The notes under the pieces: generated by a model
What the model saw: only the letters and a program-made list of their open reading frames with translations
Told to the model about the DNA's origin: nothing
The model's database searches: none
Made by a program: the position numbers and the translations under genes
NCBI GenBank assembly: GCA_027002825.1
Contig: JALWZG010000081.1
Span: 1 to 44,938, forward strand
Direction of reading: 5' to 3'
DNA: 44,938 nucleotides
Source of the DNA: Caldifarciminota bacterium
GTDB taxonomy: Bacteria > Hydrothermota > Hydrothermia > LBFQ01
Part shown: one piece after another, positions 1,210-11,835 of the stretch
Numbering within the stretch: position 1 is the first letter of the stretch
Layout of the letters: every line of letters starts with the position of its first letter

Positions 1210-2316
1210 TTATCCGGTGCTTTTAAGGCCTATGCCCTCAAGGAACTTTTCCCAGTCGGACTCGTAATCCAAGCCGGCGGCCTCGGCGCCGAGTCTCTCC
1301 GCCCACCAGACGAAGGCTTTTCTGCCCTCTTTGTACTCTTCCTGATACCAACTGTTGGCGAGGGCGTCCCTTATACCCTTTACGACGAGCTTACGCTTCT
1401 CCTCGTCCGGCTCAAGGTAGATGTAGGGGTGGAATACGGGGGACGGTACCCTGACGGCTCCGGCGATGATGAAGAGGGGTACGATGGTATTGGCCTCGTT
1501 GGAGGATTGGGCGTAAAGACCGTTCTTTATGGCGTCCAGGAGGTCTCTGATGCGTTTCTGCTTTTCTTTCTCATCTACAGTAAAGGTTATTTTTACGTGA
1601 TCGGATCCCTCCTCTCTCTCTACTCCTGCGCGAATAGGGTGGGTTACTACCTCAACCTTTTTGTTTTTGGAAACATAGGAAACTTTGATGATCCCGTTAT
1701 CTCTCTCTATCTGTAGGTTATAGGTTGCTTTGTTTTTCTTTATCGTAGTGGCAAAGATCCACTCGTCCCTTCCGAGCCTCTCGGCATCTATGGTGAAGGA
1801 TACCTTGTAGAAGGAGAGATGCTCCTCCTTCTGGTAGGGGTTGGGTGTGGCCTCACCGTGGGTGCGTCTGACCATATCGTGGTTGGCGTAGAAGGCCATA
1901 TCGCCAAGGTACGGCTCAAGGGAGACGGCCTTGGTTATACCTACGGGAGCTTTACGGATGATAGAAGGAGCGACAGCGCTTTCTCCTTTTTCTGACTTGG
2001 AGTTTTTCTTTTCCGGTGTATACATATACCCGAAGGCGTCCAGTTCCTCGCTGGTGATGATGTCGTCTTGAGTTATGTCAAACTGAATAACGTCCCCGTC
2101 CGCTTTCACCTTCGCCGGCCTCCAACCACTCGCCTTTACGAGTGTCTGGAACAGGTAGTGCCTTATGGCGGGTTTTCCGATGAAGGATAGGGTGCGGTTT
2201 CCCCGTGTTAGCTTCTTAACCGATAGGATGTTGCCTCCTATCTTCTCGTCCCTGTTGAGGGCGTTCCCCTCAAATATGAGGGTTACGGTGATGTTGGGAA
2301 TCTTCCTGTTGCTCAT
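1210..2316 (-). CDS. cas7: Cas7 (Cst2/DevR family) Cascade backbone subunit
   Basis: Cas7 polymerises along the crRNA spacer to form the Cascade backbone. The 368-residue protein starts MSNRKIPNITVTLIFEGNAL, with ALNRDE and GGNILSVKKLTRGNRT following, which is the typical Cst2/DevR start of type I-B systems. Later motifs (KAVSLEPYLGDMAFYANHDM; HPYIYLEPDEEKRKLVVKG) also fit the family. Its ATG overlaps the upstream stop in an ATGA junction, and AAAGGAGGTGAAGC precedes it, a strong ribosome binding site. Expression is therefore likely coupled to the small gene before it and boosted, in line with the many Cas7 copies per complex. The middle (about 1560-1740) is more AT-rich than the flanks. Confidence 0.93.
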   Translation of the reverse strand: MSNRKIPNITVTLIFEGNALNRDEKIGGNILSVKKLTRGNRTLSFIGKPAIRHYLFQTLVKASGWRPAKVKADGDVIQFDITQDDIITSEELDAFGYMYTPEKKNSKSEKGESAVAPSIIRKAPVGITKAVSLEPYLGDMAFYANHDMVRRTHGEATPNPYQKEEHLSFYKVSFTIDAERLGRDEWIFATTIKKNKATYNLQIERDNGIIKVSYVSKNKKVEVVTHPIRAGVEREEGSDHVKITFTVDEKEKQKRIRDLLDAIKNGLYAQSSNEANTIVPLFIIAGAVRVPSPVFHPYIYLEPDEEKRKLVVKGIRDALANSWYQEEYKEGRKAFVWWAERLGAEAAGLDYESDWEKFLEGIGLKSTG

Positions 2317-2834
2317 GCTTCACCTCCTTTGTTTTGACAACCTGTTTCAGATATAGCAGAGAACACCCCGCTAAGGAAGGAGTACAGAAGCGTACGGAAA
2401 ACGTCGTCCGGATAGACCGGTTGGAAGATCCTGCTTAGGTCCTCCGGGACCCCCTTGTTGGCGGCGAAGAAGATCCGCAGTATCATACCGAAGACGATAT
2501 CCCTGTGGCCGTGGCGGGCGAGTTCCATTATGCGGTATCCCATCTTCTCAAAGGAGGAACAGATGTCGGGGTTATCCCGCGCTATGGCGTAGCCCGTCCT
2601 CCTTAGGCCGTTGGCGAGGTCGCTGGTGTTCTTGAGGGTGAGGCGACGGTAGATGTTGTAGAGTTCCCTTCTGCTCTGGGGGTCGTTGGCTATCTCGTAG
2701 GCTAACTTTATAAGTCCTGCGGTATTCCGGTAAAGGCGACCCAGTTCCTTAATCCACTCCTCGGCCTCCCCTGGGGTCAGTTGCCCGCTCTCGGCCTTCC
2801 TCTTAAACTCCTCAAAGGTTATCATACCTGTCAT
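2313..2834 (-). CDS. Stand-alone small-subunit-like protein (Cas11b-like, Cas8b C-terminal piece)
   Basis: This predicted all-helical protein of 173 residues sits between cas8 and cas7. I start it at ATG 2834 rather than TTG 2840 because GGAGGAGG is 6 bases upstream of the ATG. It overlaps the end of cas8 by 23 bases. Its second half (GYRIMELARHGHRDIVFGMI, then KGVPEDLSRIF, then DVFRTLLYSFLSG) resembles, to my recollection, the C-terminal helical region of intact Cst1/Cas8b proteins. In known type I-B systems that region is made separately, as Cas11b, from an internal start within cas8b. Here it appears to be a separate gene. The likely role is the inner belly of Cascade, stabilising the R-loop. 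Function is inferred from position, fold pattern and remembered family features, not an alignment. Confidence 0.6.
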   Translation of the reverse strand: MTGMITFEEFKRKAESGQLTPGEAEEWIKELGRLYRNTAGLIKLAYEIANDPQSRRELYNIYRRLTLKNTSDLANGLRRTGYAIARDNPDICSSFEKMGYRIMELARHGHRDIVFGMILRIFFAANKGVPEDLSRIFQPVYPDDVFRTLLYSFLSGVFSAISETGCQNKGGEA

Positions 2835-4203
2835 ATTCAACCTCCTCCTTTAAAACGTCCGATATAGCGGCATAAAGTTGGAATAATCTTTGAGGCGTAT
2901 AAAAGTCTATCTTTTTCTTACCTTTCTTTTCCTTCTTGCTCTTTTCTTCTTCTTTCTCATCCTTGAGATTCATCCTCTCCCTTAGCATACGCTCCCCCAT
3001 ACGTAAAATGCCCTCAAAATCGCCCTTGAGGACGAGGTTGAGGACGTCGTATCGGTTAATTCTGCTCAACAGGGACGCCACCTTCCTGTTAGTTATAATT
3101 CTAACGACCTCGTAAGGTAGGGAGAAGAAATTTATTTCGTCCCCTCTCTTAAGGACAACCTCTATGTTCATCGCCGTCCAACGGGACAGCTCACGGTTGA
3201 GGCGTAGAGTCATTTCAATTAGGGACATACCGAGGATCTGCTCAACTCGTTTGGCCTTTTCCCTCCCATAAATCTCACGGGCGTATCTGTTAAGGTACCA
3301 CATAATTTTAAACGAGGGGGCGTTGATGAAGATAAGAGAATTTTTACCAAGATCAGTCATACCTATATGTCTATGTATTACAAAGAATTCGCATTTTTTG
3401 CAATAATATGACAAAGAACTAAGATTCCAAGCAGAATTTGGAAAACCATCCGCGGGAAACAGATCGGACGAGAACATATAATTTAGGGGATAAACTTTTC
3501 CTCTATGACCGCAAAATATACAAACACCCACTTTTGACTTATTTCTATTGGCAAATGGCTCAAGATTTTTGAAATCTTCAATAATTTTCCCAAGATCTCT
3601 CCATCTGGTGTTATTTATCATATTTTTGTATATATCATTTAAAGCCCCTAAACCTTGGCGTAAATATCTGTGAAGAAGGTAATCTCTCCATACATCCGGC
3701 GGGATGAAATCACAAATGTTAATAATTTCCTCCTTGTCATTACTGTTGTATATGGAGACCAGTTTATTTTCAATTTCCAAAATCTTGTAATTTCTTGAAT
3801 TTCCGTGAAAAATATCAACTTTCTTCTTTTTAATTCTTATTGGACTGTTTTTCTTTCTGCTATCACTTTGAATTTCACTTATTAAAAGATCCTTGATATC
3901 TGATACTTTTAATGGCTTACATACCTCCATAGAAAACTTTCTTCCAGTAGTTTGCTGTAAATACGACCACCAGTATGAAGGTAATCCCTCTAAAATCGTA
4001 CCCTTAAGATCATCAGAAGTTTTATTAAAATTTTCCTCTAAAATCTTCGTTTCCACCTCCACCCCTCCATCCTCCCTCAACATCCCCTCAACGTCCTCTC
4101 CCATGGCGTCCAACACCCTCAAGAACCCCACAACACCGGCGTTGTAGAGCCAGTTCGCAGGATAGAGCGTCAGCTTAGATGATGAAAGCGTCATCTTCGT
4201 CAT
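2812..4203 (-). CDS. cas8b: Cas8b (Cst1-type CXXC-CXXC) Cascade large subunit
   Basis: Cas8 recognises the PAM on target DNA and helps recruit Cas3. The protein has 463 residues. It starts near LTLYPANWLYNAGVVGFLRV, the usual Cst1 N-terminus, and has two CXXC pairs: C228/C231 (CIFCG) and C268/C271 (CKKC), a probable zinc site that defines the family. A very charged linker (about 415-431) precedes the last 30 residues. AAGGAGGT lies just upstream of the ATG, which overlaps the end of cas3 by 29 bases. The protein seems to lack the C-terminal helical section, which matches the separate gene at 2313-2834. Residues about 48-300 are encoded by DNA far more AT-rich than the flanks. Confidence 0.85.
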   Translation of the reverse strand: MTKMTLSSSKLTLYPANWLYNAGVVGFLRVLDAMGEDVEGMLREDGGVEVETKILEENFNKTSDDLKGTILEGLPSYWWSYLQQTTGRKFSMEVCKPLKVSDIKDLLISEIQSDSRKKNSPIRIKKKKVDIFHGNSRNYKILEIENKLVSIYNSNDKEEIINICDFIPPDVWRDYLLHRYLRQGLGALNDIYKNMINNTRWRDLGKIIEDFKNLEPFANRNKSKVGVCIFCGHRGKVYPLNYMFSSDLFPADGFPNSAWNLSSLSYYCKKCEFFVIHRHIGMTDLGKNSLIFINAPSFKIMWYLNRYAREIYGREKAKRVEQILGMSLIEMTLRLNRELSRWTAMNIEVVLKRGDEINFFSLPYEVVRIITNRKVASLLSRINRYDVLNLVLKGDFEGILRMGERMLRERMNLKDEKEEEKSKKEKKGKKKIDFYTPQRLFQLYAAISDVLKEEVEYDRYDNL

Positions 4204-6883
4204 CTTCTAACCTCCTTTTGGTATGTTCTAAACCTATCTCTTTTTCGTAGTCATCTTTCACCACAAAAATACCACTCAACCAACGTTTAAGTCTTCTTTT
4301 ACCCTCATCTTTGAGATTCTCTTCTCCTTCCTCTTCATAAATTTTCCTGTAAAGATGCTCATACTTCCCACCTTCCTCCATCGCTTTCATTTCAATAAAT
4401 CTTAAAATTCCATAACTTACCCACTTCCAAGGCACACTTACGATGTACTTTGACAGAACATCTCGTTTAAAGTGAGCGTAATTTTGATTGGGATCGTTGA
4501 GATCAAAACTTAAAACGGCGTTTATGAAATCTTCAAGGAGGTTCTCCGGTACGGCATCTACCTCGTATATCTCCCTGAATATCCTCTGGGCTTCGGCTTT
4601 CCTCCCGGATACCCATCCCTCGTCCAAAACTGCGAGGGTGTCGTAGAAGGTTCTTATGTATTTACTCTCATCAGCTAGGGCATCAAGAGTGGCGTAGAAG
4701 CCCCTGACTATGGCGTACTTGTCGTACTCGGAGAGGGGGAAGGACAGGGCGTCCTTGCCGTCCTTACGTTTCTTTGGCTTCAAGGTACTTAAAAGCTTAC
4801 TCTCAAAGGTGTCCGTATCGTAGTTGCCCTTTCTGGATTTGTATCCCACCGGTTCGTAGAAGTTCCGCCGTACGAAGTCCGGAGTTATACCCTCTTTAGG
4901 TACCTCTACCTCCCCCCACCTCCACAGCCACGCGAGGGACCACAGCATCAGGTCCTTCTCCTTCTGGTAGGGCGATGTGTGGGCGAGTTTGTTCTCTTTC
5001 TCCTTCACCCACACCCATACGAAGACGTTAGGCCCTGCGGTCAGGTCCAGACCCTCCTCCGGTATATCCATCTCCTCCCCACTGCTCTTATCCCACACTT
5101 TGCCGTCCCTGTAGAAGTACCTCCGCATCACCCTGCCCATCCTCTGGACGAGGGCGTCAAGCGGGGCGAGGTCCGTAAACAGGACGTCCCCATCTATATC
5201 AAGGGACGCCTCAACCACCTGCGTGGCTACGAGGATCTTGCCTTCGTCCTCGTCCTCCGGCTTCGGGTTCCCGAAGGCCTCCATCACCTCCCCCTCCCTC
5301 CTCCTGCGGTCCTCAAGGGTGAATCTGGAGTGGAGGAGATAGACGGGTACCCCCTCGTCCTTCAACCTCTTCTTCAACTCCTTATAGGTCTCCTGGGCGG
5401 AGACGACGGTGTTCCTTATCACTATTACCCTCTTGCCCTCCCTCGCGTGCCTCAAGATCTCCTCAATTTCCCTGCCAAACTCGGGGGCGATTTCCTGCTT
5501 CTTTTCTTCCCCCTTTTCTTTATCGTCCCTCTTGATCTTGATAAACCGCAGCTCTATGCTGTGCTTCCTTATCTGTCTGAAGTCCTCCTCGTTATCCTCG
5601 TAGATGTTGAGTATAGGGATCTCCCCGACCCTGTTTATGACCTCCTCCCTTACGAACTCCGGCAGGGTGGCCGTCATGAGGAGGAAGTTGCCGCCCATCT
5701 TTACGGTGTCCTCAAGGAACTTGACGATTATGGCCGCCGCCCTGGGGTCGTAGGCCTGCACCTCATCAACCGTCAGCCTTGAGTAGGAGATTACGGCGTA
5801 TATCTTCTCAAACGTGGGAGGTTTCAGGGCGTAGGGGAAGAACTGGTCCCCCGTTGAGACCAGGAACGGGTGCGCGAGTTGGCGGGCGAGGGCGTAGGAT
5901 GTGAAGTCTTCGCCCCTCTCAAGGTAGAAGACGTCGGCGTCGGAGTGGAGGAGGCCAAGCTTTTCCGTCCCGAATACGTCCTCCGCCCTTTGGAACATCT
6001 GATTCACGGCAGCCCTCAAGGGGAGGGTGTATATGGCCTTGGAGCCGGCGGACCAGAGGAAGGCGAACTCCGTTTTGCCATAGCCCGTGGGGGCGACGAG
6101 GATGAGGTTCCCGTTCGTTTCCTTCAACTTTGCAAACTGCCAAGCCCCCTCCCCTATCCTCTTCTTTATCGCCCCATGCACCTCATCCCTGTCCCTCGGC
6201 GGTATCTCAACATCGGAGAAGGAAACCCCCTCCTCTTCCTCAACCCAAGAGGCGAAGTGATCCGCCCTCTGGAGTAGGCCACGGATGAGTACGCCCCTCC
6301 TGTTCCTATCCGTTATCTCCCTGTCGGAGATCTGGGACAGGATGCCGTAGGGTGGCGGTGCGATGCGAAATAGATCCAAACCCCTGGCCAGAGATTCGGT
6401 TGTGTTCTCGTTCAACTTATAGGCCTTCCCCATCTCGTTTTTGAGGTTTTCAAGGAGGGCGTCCCTGAAATTCGTATCTTTCAACAGTCTCTTTGCCAGT
6501 TCGTTCAGGGCGCTCCAGCCCTTCCCGATTATCTCCTCAAACTTTTCCCTCCAGTGGTGATACGCAACGGCTACCCTAACGTCATCAGAAAAATCCCCCG
6601 GCACAAAGAGGAGGGAGACGAAGGAGTGGGGTACGTTTAAGGTGAGGTCAAAAGGCTCGTAGCCCGTATTCTTCAGGATGTATATCTGGAAGTAGGGGAG
6701 TACCTTACCCAAGTCGTGATACTCTATAGCCTTCAGGATCTCGTTCTCAATGCCCTCAAAGTCCTCAAGGGGGTTCCGGCCCGTGCGTTTGAGGTGAGAC
6801 TTCAGGGAGAGGAAAGTTTTTTTCACATCTTCGGTGTGTCTCTTGAGGGATACCCCGGTACTTTTGGCGAGGATTTTAGCCAT
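4175..6883 (-). CDS. cas3: Cas3 fused HD nuclease-helicase
   Basis: Cas3 is recruited by Cascade, unwinds target DNA 3'-5' and degrades it. Counting from ATG 6883 (902 residues), the HD nuclease residues are H16, H56-D57 (EYHDLGK), H86 and H109/H110, with D208 in RADHF. Helicase motifs follow: APTGYGKT at 264-271, DEVQ at 373-376, MTATLP near 403 and QRMGRVMR at 580-587. A Cas3 C-terminal domain completes it. An upstream ATG at 6895 would overlap a TATAAT box, so the fifth-codon ATG is preferred, giving a nearly leaderless mRNA. It is the first gene of the cas operon and begins 64 bases after the nosD stop. The last third is AT-rich, continuing into cas8. Confidence 0.95.
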   Translation of the reverse strand: MAKILAKSTGVSLKRHTEDVKKTFLSLKSHLKRTGRNPLEDFEGIENEILKAIEYHDLGKVLPYFQIYILKNTGYEPFDLTLNVPHSFVSLLFVPGDFSDDVRVAVAYHHWREKFEEIIGKGWSALNELAKRLLKDTNFRDALLENLKNEMGKAYKLNENTTESLARGLDLFRIAPPPYGILSQISDREITDRNRRGVLIRGLLQRADHFASWVEEEEGVSFSDVEIPPRDRDEVHGAIKKRIGEGAWQFAKLKETNGNLILVAPTGYGKTEFAFLWSAGSKAIYTLPLRAAVNQMFQRAEDVFGTEKLGLLHSDADVFYLERGEDFTSYALARQLAHPFLVSTGDQFFPYALKPPTFEKIYAVISYSRLTVDEVQAYDPRAAAIIVKFLEDTVKMGGNFLLMTATLPEFVREEVINRVGEIPILNIYEDNEEDFRQIRKHSIELRFIKIKRDDKEKGEEKKQEIAPEFGREIEEILRHAREGKRVIVIRNTVVSAQETYKELKKRLKDEGVPVYLLHSRFTLEDRRRREGEVMEAFGNPKPEDEDEGKILVATQVVEASLDIDGDVLFTDLAPLDALVQRMGRVMRRYFYRDGKVWDKSSGEEMDIPEEGLDLTAGPNVFVWVWVKEKENKLAHTSPYQKEKDLMLWSLAWLWRWGEVEVPKEGITPDFVRRNFYEPVGYKSRKGNYDTDTFESKLLSTLKPKKRKDGKDALSFPLSEYDKYAIVRGFYATLDALADESKYIRTFYDTLAVLDEGWVSGRKAEAQRIFREIYEVDAVPENLLEDFINAVLSFDLNDPNQNYAHFKRDVLSKYIVSVPWKWVSYGILRFIEMKAMEEGGKYEHLYRKIYEEEGEENLKDEGKRRLKRWLSGIFVVKDDYEKEIGLEHTKRRLEDDEDDAFII

Positions 6884-6893
6884 ACAAGGGAGC

Positions 6894-6899
6894 ATTATA
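6894..6899 (-). promoter_or_regulatory. cas operon -10 box
   Basis: TATAAT on the minus strand, 10 bases before ATG 6883. No clear TTGACA sits at the usual distance. It supports a start about 3-4 bases ahead of the cas3 ATG. Confidence 0.6.
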
Positions 6900-6947
6900 A
6901 GGTAGGAGGTTTAATACACTTTGTGGATGAAAACGGAAAAACTTACA

Positions 6948-8210
6948 CTATGAACGGTTTATCTCCACCTTCGGCCTCAGCCTTGGAGGCACTTTCAAAG
7001 GAAACGGCCTCATGGCCGGCCTCTCGTCCTTTATGGCCTCAGGTATAAGCGAGGGCAGGACCTTCTCCGTTAGGTCCATTATCTGGACCAGAGGACTCCT
7101 TATGAGGACCATGAGGGCGGGAACCCGTGTGGAAATGACAGAAAAGAGTTTAACGGGCCTGAAGGGGACATCTCCAACGCCGTCCTTGTCCACGTCGTAC
7201 CCTCTGTACGCACTCCAGTAGTTCCCGTTTATGTCGTTGAAACTGCTGAAGTTGTTCGTAACGAAGTCAAACGTGTTCCCCACGATGTTGTTGCGGGTTA
7301 TCACGTTGTCGGTTGAATTCGCCCACAGCCTTATGGCTATACCGTTTTCCTTCAAAATGTTATCGTGAATTTTATTCCTCACGGAACCCTCAAGATAAAA
7401 GCCGTAGGTGTTGCGGTAGAGGTAATTGCCGTAGATTTCGCTGTCGTAAATCTCCTTGAGAAGGAAGCCGAAGGTCGCCCCTCCCCAGTGGTGTTCAAAC
7501 CTGTTGTACCGCACCGTCACCCTCTTGGAGTACATCACGGCTATACCCACACCGTTGTTCACGAAGGTGTTGTACTCGTACAGGTCGTCGTGGGAGAACA
7601 TGAAGTGTATGCCGTAGCGCACGTTCTTGGTTGAGTGGTTATAACGAAAAACGGAATTCGTCACAAATTCAAGGTATATCCCGTCCCTGTGGCCCTGAAG
7701 GTGGTTGTTCTCCACCAACATGCTGTCGCAGTTCCACATGTGTATGGCGTTTCCCGTAGTCGTCTCCACCTTTGCAAAACCCACGACAACGTTATCCCTC
7801 ACCACACCCCCCTTTGACTTCTCATAGTATATCGCCCAGAAGTTGTCCCAGAACTCATTTCCCTCCACCCTGCAGCCCGTACACTGCGTGATCTTCACGG
7901 CGGCGATATCCCTCGTCATACTCCTGCCGCTGTTCTTAAACACAAAACCCCTTATCAGTACACTGTCCGCTTTTAAAACGTGAAACATCTGATATTTGTA
8001 TTCACCGTCAATCACGGGCTTGTTGATGCCTATGAGAGATATTCCGGACTTTTCAACAACGATCTCCCCCTCGCGGTACACCCCACCCTTCACGAAGATG
8101 GTATCCCCAGATTTTACGTTCTGAAGTGCAGCTTTTATGCTTTTGTAGGTGCATCCATCCTCGCAGACGCTGACGCTTGTAGCAAACAGGAATAAAGCGG
8201 GCGCAGACAT
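6948..8210 (-). CDS. nosD: NosD, periplasmic copper-site maturation protein
   Basis: NosD works with the NosFY ABC transporter to supply sulfur for the CuZ centre of nitrous oxide reductase. The 420-residue protein has a short hydrophobic N-terminus (MSAPALFLFATSVSV) serving as an export signal. A right-handed beta-helix of CASH type follows, with repeated units such as NGVGIAVMYSKRVTVRYNRF and GNYLYRNTYGFYLEG. It starts 6 bases after the nosL stop and ends the minus-strand nos arm. The signal sequence lacks the usual basic residues. The helix repeats and the neighbours nosL and nosZ make the assignment secure. Confidence 0.95.
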   Translation of the reverse strand: MSAPALFLFATSVSVCEDGCTYKSIKAALQNVKSGDTIFVKGGVYREGEIVVEKSGISLIGINKPVIDGEYKYQMFHVLKADSVLIRGFVFKNSGRSMTRDIAAVKITQCTGCRVEGNEFWDNFWAIYYEKSKGGVVRDNVVVGFAKVETTTGNAIHMWNCDSMLVENNHLQGHRDGIYLEFVTNSVFRYNHSTKNVRYGIHFMFSHDDLYEYNTFVNNGVGIAVMYSKRVTVRYNRFEHHWGGATFGFLLKEIYDSEIYGNYLYRNTYGFYLEGSVRNKIHDNILKENGIAIRLWANSTDNVITRNNIVGNTFDFVTNNFSSFNDINGNYWSAYRGYDVDKDGVGDVPFRPVKLFSVISTRVPALMVLIRSPLVQIMDLTEKVLPSLIPEAIKDERPAMRPFPLKVPPRLRPKVEINRS

Positions 8211-8216
8211 GGCGTT

Positions 8217-8705
8217 TCATCTCATCTGCATCTGGTGGTTGTGTCCCTTTTGCATGGGGTTCTGTTTGCGCACCAGGTCTATCACCTTGGACCAGTTGAG
8301 GATTTCCCCTCCGAACTTCCTCAGAAAGGCCTCGGCGTCCTCCGTACTCTCAAAGGCGGCCACGTCGGAGGCCATGGGACTGTGGATCTTGTCGCTCTGT
8401 ATGTATACGGCCTTGGTGGCGTCTATGAGTTTGCCGGGATGGGCGTAGTCCACGACCAGGAAGAAGGCCACGTCCTTCTCGGAGAGTTCGGGATCCTCCC
8501 AGAAGTGGTTTATCATACAGGCGACGTCGTCGTACTTGTAGACCTTGCCCTTCTTGGTGACCAGCTCCGCTCCGAAGCGTTGGTCGGTTATGGTCATCTT
8601 GCACCAGTAGCAGGCGTCCTTTCCGAACTCAATAGGGACGGGCTTTGGTTCGGATACGCAACCGGCAAGGAAGAGAAGTACCGCGAACAGGATAGGCCTA
8701 CCCAT
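8217..8705 (-). CDS. nosL: NosL, outer copper chaperone lipoprotein
   Basis: NosL binds Cu(I) and delivers it to nitrous oxide reductase. I start it at ATG 8705, where AAAGGAGAGGAA precedes the codon, giving 162 residues. The N-terminus MGRPILFAVLLFLAGC is a lipoprotein signal with the lipidated cysteine at 16. The family copper motif CYWCKM follows at about 40. The C-terminal tail HNHQMQMR is rich in His and Met and could hold extra copper. The start overlaps the stop of the preceding membrane-protein gene by 8 bases. Downstream is nosD. Expression depends on readthrough of the terminator at 9293-9319 or on a promoter I could not identify. Confidence 0.95.
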   Translation of the reverse strand: MGRPILFAVLLFLAGCVSEPKPVPIEFGKDACYWCKMTITDQRFGAELVTKKGKVYKYDDVACMINHFWEDPELSEKDVAFFLVVDYAHPGKLIDATKAVYIQSDKIHSPMASDVAAFESTEDAEAFLRKFGGEILNWSKVIDLVRKQNPMQKGHNHQMQMR

Positions 8706-9273
8706 TTCCTCTCCTTTTAACGTAGAGCCAGTCAAGGACGATAACCAAGAAGACTATGACACCGGCCGCTATGGCAAGCCAGCCGCCTACGTCGGGCATG
8801 GACCACACGACGAAGTTAAGGAGGACCTTCTTACCTATGAGGGGAGGGGTGAAGGGGTCTATCTTCAGGGGAGCGTTGGGGTCCAGGTCGTGGCCGTAGT
8901 GGTACAGCCATTTGTAGAAGTCGGCCATGGCTATGATGCCGAAGGCGGCGTAGAGGATGAACCACGTCCAGATGAGCTTACGCTTGTACCAGATAGCGAG
9001 GATGATGGCCGTTATGGCGAAGAACCAGAAGGCTATGGGGAGTATGGTGAACTCGGGTATATGCTCCGGTAGAGGGTGCATCCCAACGTAATGGTTGAGG
9101 TCGTCTATGATCTTCTTCTGCTGGAGGTCTCCCCAACCACCCGTCAGGATGACCAGACGCAGGCCCTCCGGATACTGGGGGGCTATCAGGTCTATGTACC
9201 ACAGCCGCACGAAGTTGACGGCTGCGAGGAGCAGACCTGCCACGAAGAGGAGGATGCGGTTAAGCGTTTTCAT
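8698..9273 (-). CDS. Four-helix membrane protein of the nos locus (NosB-like position)
   Basis: The ATG at 9273 (MKTLNRILLFVAGLLLAAV) is preferred to the longer frame starting at 9330, because the extra 19 residues are encoded by the terminator hairpin region. The 191-residue protein has about four membrane segments: LLFVAGLLLAAVNFV, then one near FTILPIAFWFFAITAIILAI, one near WTWFILYAAFGIIAM, and a last one near WLAIAAGVIVFLVIVL. Clade II nos clusters commonly encode a membrane protein (NosB in epsilonproteobacteria) next to nosZ, so a role in nosZ electron supply or maturation is plausible. I do not see heme or metal motifs. Sequence identity to NosB is not established here. Confidence 0.65.
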   Translation of the reverse strand: MKTLNRILLFVAGLLLAAVNFVRLWYIDLIAPQYPEGLRLVILTGGWGDLQQKKIIDDLNHYVGMHPLPEHIPEFTILPIAFWFFAITAIILAIWYKRKLIWTWFILYAAFGIIAMADFYKWLYHYGHDLDPNAPLKIDPFTPPLIGKKVLLNFVVWSMPDVGGWLAIAAGVIVFLVIVLDWLYVKRRGNG

Positions 9274-9292
9274 GGTTTTTTTCCATCCGGTT

Positions 9293-9319
9293 AAAAAAAG
9301 GGGGGGCTTTAGCCCCCCC
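9293..9319 (-). terminator. Intrinsic terminator after nosZ
   Basis: On the minus strand, GGGGGGGC-TAAA-GCCCCCCC forms a perfect 8-base-pair stem with a 4-base loop (9300-9319), followed by seven T residues (9293-9299). It lies 14 bases after the nosZ stop and before the membrane-protein start, so it divides the nos operon. It is the only clear rho-independent terminator seen in the window. Confidence 0.9.
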
Positions 9320-9333
9320 GACCTTTTCATGCG

Positions 9334-11331
9334 TTAGAGCGCTTTGTCCAGTCCCCACTTGAGGGGTACGTTGGAGCCTTTGGGTGAGACACGGATATAA
9401 CCCTGCATCTCCTGGTGCAGGGCTGAACAGAAGTCCGTGCAGTAGAAGGGATACACGCCGGGCTTCTTGGGCACCCACCTGATGGTGAGGGTCTGACCGG
9501 GCATTATGAGGGCGTTGGGAACCTCGGCGCCGAGTATGGCGAAGCCGTGCGGGATGTCCCAATCCTGCTCTATGTTCGTGACGTGGAAGTAGACGGTATC
9601 GCCGACCCTGATACCCTCTATGTTGTCGGGGTTGAAGTGGGACCTGATGGCCGTCATGTAGATGTGGACGACGTTGCCCTTGCGCTCAACCTTCACCTCG
9701 TTCTCGCTCTTTACGGCGTAAGGATGCTCGTTCTCGTCCAGCTTGTAGATCTTTACGATCTTGTCCTTTATGAGGTCGGCCGCCAAGGCCTGGGCGTAGT
9801 GAGGCTCACCTACGGTCGGGAAGTCAAGGAGCATCTCCATCTTCTCACCGCTGATGTCTATGAGCTGGGCGGAGTGGTTGAGCTCGGGACCGACGGGCAG
9901 GTACCTGTCCTTGGTTATCTTGTTCAGGGCGACGACGTACTTACCCCAAGGCTTACGGGAGTCTCCACCGGGTACCAGGAGGTGACCTATGGAGTAGTAG
10001 ACGGGTATACGGTCCACGACCTCGCACTTCTCGTAGTCGTACTTGATGACCTCGGAGGAGATGAAGCAGGAGGTGTACGCGTAGCCCTTGCCGTCAAACT
10101 CCGTGTGCAGGGGACCGATACAGGCCTTGGGGACCAAGCAGTGGTTCACGGACTCAAACTTCAGCACGGGGATACCCTCTATGACCTTCTCAAACTCCTT
10201 GTTCTCTATGGCCTTCATCATTTTGGAGAAGGAGTGGATGGGTATGTCGGCGGAGAGCTTACCACCACCTATGATGTACTCACCCGTGGGGTCTACGTCC
10301 ACGCCGTGCGGAGACTTGGGCGTGGGCAGGAAGTAGGCCAGACCCTCGCACTCGCTGGGGAATATGACCTTGACCTTGTCTCCGACCTTGGAGAAGGCCA
10401 TGTGCTTCTTTTCATCGTAGTAGTTGTGGTAGTACTTGGCGGGGAACTCGTGATACTTACCCTCGTTTATGCACTGCTCGGCCCTCTTCCAGTTGATGGC
10501 TATGATGTAGTCCTTGTCGTTCTGGGAGGCGTTCTTCTCAAGCAGGGTGTGGGCCTGCTCGGTGTTGTAGGAGGTGAAGAAGCACCAGCCGTGGCTGGGC
10601 CCCTTACCGCAGTGGGCGAGGTCGTAGTCGTATCCGGGGACGAGGATCTGGAAGGCGATCTCCATCCTGTCCTCACCCTCGTAGTTGGGGTCGTTGTTCA
10701 CCTTGATGAAGGTGATGGTTCCCTTGAACTCCTTGGCGTAGTCCTTGATGGGTACGTCCTTGAAGGTACCCTTCTGGATGTCTATGGGTACGGAGAAGCG
10801 GGTGGCGGCCGTAACGTACTCGGTGTTCATGGTTATGAAGGTGGAGGGGTGGTTTCCACCGCTGTTGGGTATCTCAAGGATCTCACGGGTCTCCATGGTG
10901 GCCAGGTCTATACGGGCAACACGAGGGGTGTTGTTGGCGTTGATGAAGATCCAGCGGCCGTCCACCTCACCGTTCGTCTGGGAGAGCTCGGGGTGGTGGG
11001 TGTCATCCCACGGTATGAAGCCGTGGGACGTCATGAGCATCGCCTTCGTCTCCTCCGTGTAGCCGTAGCCGTTGCGCGGGAATACGGAGAACACCGGGAT
11101 GATCTTCAGAAGCCTACCGGAGGGGAGACCGTAGACCATCAACTGGCCGTTGAACCCTCCGGAGAGGAAGGCGTAGAACTCGTCGTACTCGCCGGGGGCC
11201 ACGTAGACCTTCTCGGCCGCGGTGCCGCCGGCCTTCGCCGCTCCCTTCTCCTTAGGCGGGCACCCCATGAAGAGGGCGCCTGCCCCCAGTATTCCCACCA
11301 ATCCCGCAAATACAAGGGTGCGTTTACTCAT
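9334..11331 (-). CDS. nosZ: NosZ, nitrous oxide reductase (clade II, Sec-exported)
   Basis: NosZ reduces N2O to N2. The start is ATG 11331, with AAAAGGAGGTGATT directly upstream, a nearly complete match to the 16S rRNA tail. The 665-residue protein begins MSKRTLVFAGLVGILGAGAL, a Sec-type signal rather than the twin-arginine signal of clade I. Cys24 after FMG could be lipid-modified. The CuZ histidine regions are present (DTHHPE, GGNHPS, SPHGVD, PLHTEF, IGHLLVP, ELNHSAQ, GEPHYAQ). The C-terminal cupredoxin domain has the CuA site CTDFCSALHQEM with C631, C635, H639 and M642. A cytochrome c lipoprotein precedes it and a terminator follows. Confidence 0.98.
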   Translation of the reverse strand: MSKRTLVFAGLVGILGAGALFMGCPPKEKGAAKAGGTAAEKVYVAPGEYDEFYAFLSGGFNGQLMVYGLPSGRLLKIIPVFSVFPRNGYGYTEETKAMLMTSHGFIPWDDTHHPELSQTNGEVDGRWIFINANNTPRVARIDLATMETREILEIPNSGGNHPSTFITMNTEYVTAATRFSVPIDIQKGTFKDVPIKDYAKEFKGTITFIKVNNDPNYEGEDRMEIAFQILVPGYDYDLAHCGKGPSHGWCFFTSYNTEQAHTLLEKNASQNDKDYIIAINWKRAEQCINEGKYHEFPAKYYHNYYDEKKHMAFSKVGDKVKVIFPSECEGLAYFLPTPKSPHGVDVDPTGEYIIGGGKLSADIPIHSFSKMMKAIENKEFEKVIEGIPVLKFESVNHCLVPKACIGPLHTEFDGKGYAYTSCFISSEVIKYDYEKCEVVDRIPVYYSIGHLLVPGGDSRKPWGKYVVALNKITKDRYLPVGPELNHSAQLIDISGEKMEMLLDFPTVGEPHYAQALAADLIKDKIVKIYKLDENEHPYAVKSENEVKVERKGNVVHIYMTAIRSHFNPDNIEGIRVGDTVYFHVTNIEQDWDIPHGFAILGAEVPNALIMPGQTLTIRWVPKKPGVYPFYCTDFCSALHQEMQGYIRVSPKGSNVPLKWGLDKAL

Positions 11332-11343
11332 AATCACCTCCTT

Positions 11344-11835
11344 TTATTTCTTTTCCCTTGCGGCTTTTCTCAAAAACTCAAGTATGGCCCTCGCCTCCTC
11401 CACGCTCACGTTCTGGTTGGTCATGGGGACGCCGTACTCCTCAAGGAGCTTCTTCGCCACAGGGTCCTTCAGGATCATCTCCTCCGGATTCACTATCATG
11501 TTCATGATCCACTCCGGGGGTCTCTGGTTTACGACATCCCTGAGAGGGGGTCCCACCAGGCGGTCGTCCAGTTTGTGGCAGGAGGTGCACTGCTTCTTCT
11601 CAAACAGCTCCTCACCCTTCTTCGCCAGGGCCTCGTCTATGGTCTCGGGGAGGTTCAGGGGCTCCTGCACCGGACCTACACCGAACTCGCTGACCTGCTC
11701 CGAAGCCTTCTCGGTCTCGGCCACGACCTTCTCCTTCTCGGCCGGGGTTTCCTTCGTCTCGCCTTTACTCCCCCCTCCGCAGCTGACAAGGGCCAGGGGA
11801 GTTATCAGCAGCCCTAAAAGGATAACCCTTCTCAT
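11344..11835 (-). CDS. Monoheme cytochrome c lipoprotein of the nos locus
   Basis: This is a likely electron donor to NosZ in the periplasm. The 163-residue precursor has a lipoprotein signal MRRVILLGLLITPLALVSC with Cys19. A Glu/Lys-rich linker to about residue 50 follows, then a class I cytochrome domain. Heme attaches at C83-TS-C86-H87. M138 in GVPMTN is the likely sixth ligand. It is the first gene of the minus nos arm and is followed 12 bases later by nosZ. The start codon lies 9 bases downstream of a TATAAT box with no ribosome binding site. In clade II clusters such cytochromes stand in for the NosR route, which is not seen here. Confidence 0.93.
   Translation of the reverse strand: MRRVILLGLLITPLALVSCGGGSKGETKETPAEKEKVVAETEKASEQVSEFGVGPVQEPLNLPETIDEALAKKGEELFEKKQCTSCHKLDDRLVGPPLRDVVNQRPPEWIMNMIVNPEEMILKDPVAKKLLEEYGVPMTNQNVSVEEARAILEFLRKAAREKK

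What the first reader, a model, noticed from the sequence alone, without database searches (positions are those of the whole stretch)
2313..4203. Cas8b split into a large subunit and a separate Cas11-like gene
The Cst1-like Cas8 keeps its start and CXXC-CXXC site but ends at 463 residues. A separate 173-residue helical protein with its own strong ribosome site follows, overlapping by 23 bases. Its second half looks like the C-terminal end of intact Cas8b. In described type I-B systems the small subunit is made from an internal start in cas8b. A genetic split would let the cell set the small-subunit dose independently.
Basis: partly seen in the sequence, partly recalled or inferred. Interest (0 to 1): 0.65.

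Follow-up and report, generated by a model that had tools for sequence, protein, structure and literature searches.

The report
Stand-alone small-subunit gene, type I-B CRISPR
This CRISPR immune system makes the small subunit of its DNA-surveillance complex from a gene of its own instead of from inside the large-subunit gene; this real but already catalogued arrangement recurs in other bacteria, where one relative has the two genes fused with a start signal kept inside.

Summary
On the minus strand, a 463-residue Cas8b/Cst1-type large subunit (4203-2812) is followed, with a 23-base overlap, by a separate 173-residue gene (2834-2313) with a strong ribosome site. That gene is Cas11b. It matches two PADLOC small-subunit models, one labelled "Small subunit of some of I-B systems". 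A profile built only from split copies hits the C-terminus of fused Cas8b proteins.

The split is no local accident. Of 21 related loci in the window's phylum (WOR-3) and Bacteroidota, 19 are split, one has a broken cas8 plus a separate cas11, and one (G099) is a single frame that keeps a Shine-Dalgarno site and ATG at the junction.

Internal starts in fused genes already decouple dose, and the cas11 ribosome site is about as strong as that of cas8 and weaker than that of cas7. The split form is database-known, although recent I-B papers overlook it. Structure prediction failed because the permitted alignment was too shallow.

Less expected: the Cas8b centre is exchanged as a cassette between close relatives, with synonymous sites saturated inside it and little changed outside.

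The parts
2313..2834 (-). cas11b, stand-alone small subunit, 173 aa
   Evidence: PADLOC PDLC01193 E 1e-38 and PDLC01190 E 6e-26; homology to fused Cas8b C-termini; dN/dS about 0.3
2812..4203 (-). cas8b (Cst1-type) large subunit without the Cas11-like tail, 463 aa
   Evidence: PDLC01204 E 2e-97 over its whole length, TIGR01908 above cut-off, PF09706 at the cut-off
2812..2834 (-). 23-base overlap of the end of cas8b and the start of cas11b
   Evidence: same overlap in L002
2835..2854 (-). ribosome-binding stretch of cas11b (TTTAAAGGAGGAGGTTGAAT), inside the last codons of cas8b
   Evidence: Shine-Dalgarno duplex -14.3 kcal/mol
1210..2316 (-). cas7 (Cst2/DevR type)
   Evidence: TIGR02585 172.5 bits
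428..1207 (-). cas5 (Cas5t)
   Evidence: TIGR01895 127 bits
1..438 (-). start of cas6, cut by the contig end
   Evidence: open frame to the end of the contig, same N-terminus as the complete cas6 of L002
4175..6895 (-). cas3 helicase-nuclease
   Evidence: TIGR01587 and TIGR01596 above cut-off; PDLC01757 E 4e-138
3320..4050 (-). central cassette of cas8b, replaced relative to L002
   Evidence: no DNA similarity inside, 92-100% in the flanks; synonymous sites saturated inside

Best explanation
The 173-residue protein is Cas11b, the small subunit of a type I-B (Cst1/Cst2/Cas5t) Cascade, encoded by a stand-alone gene just behind a cas8b that lacks the usual Cas11-like tail. Shown: homology to I-B small subunits and to fused Cas8b C-termini, operon context, an own ribosome site, purifying selection, and recurrence in many relatives. 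Inferred: ribosomes initiate at the ATG at 2834 within the end of cas8b and make several Cas11b per Cas8b; the Cas11b copies line the belly of Cascade and hold the displaced DNA strand during R-loop formation so that Cas3 can act, as in solved type I complexes. In the fused relative G099 the same junction carries an internal ribosome site and ATG, so the separate gene probably does what internal initiation does elsewhere.
For: PADLOC Cas11b hits E 1e-38 and 6e-26, and a large-subunit model without tail E 2e-97. The fused Cas8b model PDLC02050 is divided between the two proteins: Cas8 matches positions 3-357, the small protein 401-488 at E 0.003; a short stand-alone homologue and a Bacteroidota one match the same tail at E 1.3e-6 and 7e-5. 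An HMM from split copies only hits fused G099 (E 8e-35) and the last 100 residues of a 645-aa fused Cas8b (E 3e-5), against 0.19 for the best of 1,000 shuffles. 19 intact split loci in two phyla. Ribosome site at the junction of the WOR-3 split loci and of fused G099. dN/dS about 0.3. Role of Cas11b in Cascade from PMC11096372 and PMC11899642.
Against: No structural confirmation: the AlphaFold model is poor (pLDDT 51.6) and its fold matches are generic helical bundles. The first ~70 residues have no counterpart in short stand-alone forms or in fused G099, so their role is unexplained. No expression, binding or interference data. No CRISPR array was seen in the window or in L002.
Confidence: 0.93

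Rival explanations
1. A recent frameshift or assembly error split an intact fused cas8b-cas11b gene, and the second frame is only a remnant.
For: The two frames overlap and the second encodes the missing C-terminal part; a fused relative, G099, exists.
Against: The same overlap and ribosome site occur in an independent assembly (L002), separate genes occur in 19 loci with differing overlaps and gaps, the small protein is under purifying selection, and it carries ~70 extra N-terminal residues not present in fused G099.
Confidence: 0.02
2. The split exists to set Cas11b dose independently of Cas8b.
For: A strong own ribosome site (-14.3 kcal/mol); several Cas11b per Cas8b are needed in I-B Cascade (PMC11096372).
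Against: Fused genes with an internal start do the same; G099's internal site is equally strong (-13.6), the cas8 site is similar (-13.4), the cas7 site stronger (-18.0), and several Bacteroidota split genes have weak sites (-0.9 to -8.8). Same operon, overlapping genes.
Confidence: 0.15
3. The small protein is an unrelated accessory helical protein, for example an inhibitor or regulator, that lies next to cas8b.
For: Its first ~70 residues lack homology to fused Cas8b; the fold is not confirmed.
Against: Profile matches to I-B small subunits, tail homology to fused Cas8b, and the cas8b beside it lacks the tail.
Confidence: 0.03

Closest known systems
PADLOC Cas11b families PDLC01193, PDLC01190 ('Small subunit of some of I-B systems') and PDLC01541
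   Same: I-B small subunit as a protein of its own; the window protein matches the first two at E 1e-38 and 6e-26
   Different: Nothing essential; the window is a new member. I found no experimental work on these families.
Type I-B Cas11b made by internal initiation in cas8b (Haloferax volcanii, PMC11899642; Synechocystis, PMC11096372; predicted for Thermotoga maritima, PMC13199841)
   Same: Same kind of subunit, by homology to the C-terminus of fused Cas8b proteins; a ribosome site at the junction
   Different: Here a separate reading frame; cas8b stops first, so no single protein carries both parts
Stand-alone Cas11 of types I-A (Csa5) and I-E (Cse2)
   Same: Small subunit from its own gene (PMC11899642)
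   Different: Different subtypes; no match to them was seen here, and all other effector genes of the operon are I-B

Membership tests
Type I-B effector operon (Cst1/Cst2/Cas5t) | Cas8b/Cst1 large subunit with CXXC-CXXC | tested here: met
   TIGR01908 36.5 bits (cut-off 19.4); PF09706 21.3 (cut-off 21); PDLC01204 E 1.6e-97
Type I-B effector operon (Cst1/Cst2/Cas5t) | Cas7 of Cst2/DevR type and Cas5t | tested here: met
   TIGR02585 172.5 bits (cut-off 72.75); TIGR01895 127 bits (cut-off 96.7)
Type I-B effector operon (Cst1/Cst2/Cas5t) | Cas3, Cas6 and Cas1 in the genome | tested here: met
   cas3 in the window; cas6 start at the contig end, complete in L002; cas1 on contig C88, in DNA 96% identical to the stretch downstream of cas6 in L002
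Type I-B effector operon (Cst1/Cst2/Cas5t) | CRISPR array | tested here: inconclusive
   None in the window or L002; the contig ends inside cas6 and the rest of the genome was not scanned for arrays
Cas11b small subunit (stand-alone) | Match to I-B small-subunit profiles | tested here: met
   PDLC01193 and PDLC01190
Cas11b small subunit (stand-alone) | Homology to the C-terminal domain of fused Cas8b | tested here: met
   Split-only HMM: E 8e-35 (G099), 3e-5 (G039); hhalign with the single G034 tail is weak (probability 13.5)
Cas11b small subunit (stand-alone) | Helical-bundle fold like solved Cas11b (8H67) | tested here: inconclusive
   Model all-helical but pLDDT 51.6; VIA matches generic
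Cas11b small subunit (stand-alone) | Present in purified Cascade in several copies and needed for DNA binding or interference | not testable with these tools
   Needs biochemistry

The most novel reading that the evidence does not exclude
Split-cas11 I-B systems are built from exchangeable parts. The Cas8b centre (the part with the zinc site, expected to belong to the PAM-reading half), with pieces of Cas7 and the Cas8-end/Cas11-start block, is replaced as cassettes between relatives and across phyla, and the cas8/cas11 junction can switch between a fused gene with internal start and two genes in few steps. Cassette exchange would change PAM choice or escape anti-CRISPR proteins while the rest of Cascade is kept.
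Probability: 0.35. Interest if true: 0.62.

Novelty: new member of a known kind. Interest (0 to 1): 0.36.

Why it matters
A recent paper states that type I-B lacks a separate small-subunit gene (PMC13199841), yet profile libraries and the loci here show that a branch of I-B has one. For anyone reconstituting I-B Cascade this is practical: such systems supply Cas11 as a natural gene, whereas T. maritima Cas11 had to be added by hand. The G099 locus, fused with the junction ribosome site retained, is a natural comparison for how a gene within a gene becomes two genes, or the reverse. The cassette exchange in Cas8b, if functional, offers matched pairs of nearly identical Cascades that differ in the probable PAM-reading part.

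Tried and rejected
VIA-align of the Cas11 model against PDB gave generic helical bundles with best Z 7.5, below the tool's own noise level for helical proteins; no Cas11 chain was listed, which is not evidence against it. Sequence searches of PDB with the protein or the profile gave chance or low-complexity helical matches only. Pfam and NCBIfam gave no significant match to the small protein. The viral contig scan found no relatives; the genome-contig scan found two. A recent frameshift or assembly split was considered and rejected. The direction of change, fusion or fission, could not be decided: the Cas7 tree needs one change but with 50/0 support, and in G098, the closest relative of G099, the contig ends before the junction. 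No CRISPR array was found in the window or in L002. For the Cas8b cassettes, holding the window and L002 together in the centre tree was not rejected (p 0.39), so for that pair the evidence is the synonymous-site contrast, not the tree. Rfam found nothing in the window. Literature searches for Cas8 domain exchange found nothing relevant.

Full report
What is there. The window is one whole contig (C81) of a 1.72-Mb, 113-contig genome; its nearest named relative is a candidate division WOR-3 bacterium (L002). The minus strand carries, in order, cas3 (6895-4175), cas8b (4203-2812), a small gene (2834-2313), cas7 (2316-1210), cas5 (1207-428) and the start of cas6, which runs off the contig end. 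Curated profiles place the set in type I-B of the Cst1/Cst2/Cas5t kind. The genome's cas1 lies on another contig, in DNA 96% identical to the stretch that follows cas6 in L002, so the locus is probably complete and only cut by assembly (the last step is inference).

The observation. The duplex energy of the site is -14.3 kcal/mol, at about the 1% quantile of random positions. The overlap and the site are the same in L002, an independent assembly with a 69%-identical protein. Nonsynonymous change is held back (dN 0.21, dS 0.70).

Identity of the small protein. It matches PADLOC Cas11b models PDLC01193 (E 1e-38) and PDLC01190, 'Small subunit of some of I-B systems' (E 6e-26). The large subunit matches PDLC01204, a 337-position model, from end to end (E 2e-97). 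The fused-type model PDLC02050 (496 positions) is divided between the two window proteins, 3-357 and 401-488. A profile built only from stand-alone copies finds the C-terminus of G099 (E 8e-35) and residues 540-635 of a 645-residue fused Cas8b (E 3e-5); the best of 1,000 shuffled sequences reached 0.19. The first half (about 70 residues) is an extra part, absent from short stand-alone forms of about 100 residues in G033, G067 and G121 and from fused G099.

Survey. Searches covered 147 genomes of the window's phylum, 395 Bacteroidota genomes, and three orders around Bacteroidota hits. Twenty-one loci show the junction. In 19 both genes are intact and separate, in one (G029) cas8 is broken but cas11 is separate, and one (G099) is a single frame of 469 residues. 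The junctions range from a 23-base overlap to gaps of a few bases. In the split loci of the window's phylum a clear ribosome site lies at the junction, mostly inside the last codons of cas8; G099 keeps AGAAAGGGAGGTCAAG-ATG (-13.6 kcal/mol) inside its fused frame. Longer, more distant fused Cas8b proteins (609-645 residues) also occur in the phylum. Fused and split states are thus mechanically close; which came first is not resolved.

How it works. In I-B complexes studied elsewhere, Cas11b forms the belly of Cascade with the Cas8b C-terminal domain and supports the displaced strand (PMC11096372: one Cas8b, seven Cas7b, one Cas5b, one Cas6b, three Cas11b). In Haloferax it is needed for efficient interference (PMC11899642). 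In T. [quoted passage not shown] The separate gene most likely supplies this subunit. That it is translated and enters the complex is inferred. One structural consequence, also inferred, is that Cas8b here has no tail of its own, so all belly positions would be filled by free Cas11b.

Dose. The claim that a split allows independent dosing adds little. Internal initiation in fused genes already gives extra Cas11; fused G099 has an equally strong site; the cas11 site is similar to that of cas8 (-13.4) and weaker than that of cas7 (-18.0); and several Bacteroidota split genes have weak sites.

Novelty. PADLOC-DB of 2023 carries three I-B small-subunit models, so the arrangement is known to annotators. 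The papers found here describe I-B Cas11 as internally translated (PMC13199841, PMC11899642, PMC11096372). I found no experimental work on a stand-alone I-B cas11 in the open library, which misses most subscription journals.

A side result. Against L002 the operon is about 94-99% identical in DNA over most of its length, but the Cas8b centre (window about 3320-4050) shows no DNA similarity, and the Cas8-end/Cas11-start block, parts of Cas7 and a part of Cas3 are also divergent. Synonymous differences are saturated inside the Cas8 centre (pS 0.65-0.95) and low outside it (0.04-0.18 in the flanking blocks), which points to replacement by recombination and not only to fast protein change. Across 17 relatives the tree of the centre conflicts with that of the rest of Cas8b: G098 and G099, together at 100/100 in the C-terminal tree, are rejected as a pair in the centre tree (AU p 0.0005); G336, G218 and G931, a C-terminal clade at 96/96, are rejected in the centre (p 0.002); G098, G303 and G942, a clade of the centre at 100/99, are rejected in the C-terminal tree (p 1e-75). 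The trees are small, some branches are long, and the last group was named after seeing a tree. In the Synechocystis I-B complex the Cas8b N-terminal domain and Cas5b read the PAM (PMC11096372), so PAM switching is a natural hypothesis, untested here.

Noticed in passing
window 3320-4050 against L002 about 6850-7570; also G098/G099 and G218/G931: The Cas8b central region with the CXXC-CXXC site is exchanged as a cassette between close relatives, with saturated synonymous sites inside and near-identical flanks; about four cassette types are shared between the window's phylum and Bacteroidota.
   Followed up: partly
window 1570-2040, 2520-3020 and 4720-4960 against L002: Further divergent blocks in Cas7, in the Cas8-end/Cas11-start stretch and in the C-terminal part of Cas3 within an otherwise highly similar operon. 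The Cas7 tree also conflicts with the Cas8 tree: G222 groups with G336 in Cas7 but with G934 in Cas8.
   Followed up: partly
L022 (G099), internal ATG of the 469-aa frame: Single-frame Cas8b-Cas11b with a ribosome site and ATG kept inside the frame: a natural fused counterpart of the window's split genes.
   Followed up: yes
L012/L028 (G029): cas8 is broken into pieces while a separate short cas11 frame remains; decay or sequencing error not distinguished.
   Followed up: no
window 6948-11835: Just upstream of cas3 the minus strand encodes what look like nitrous oxide reductase genes (a large NosZ-like protein, NosD-like and NosL-like proteins, a c-type cytochrome), judged by eye from the ORF list.
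   Followed up: no
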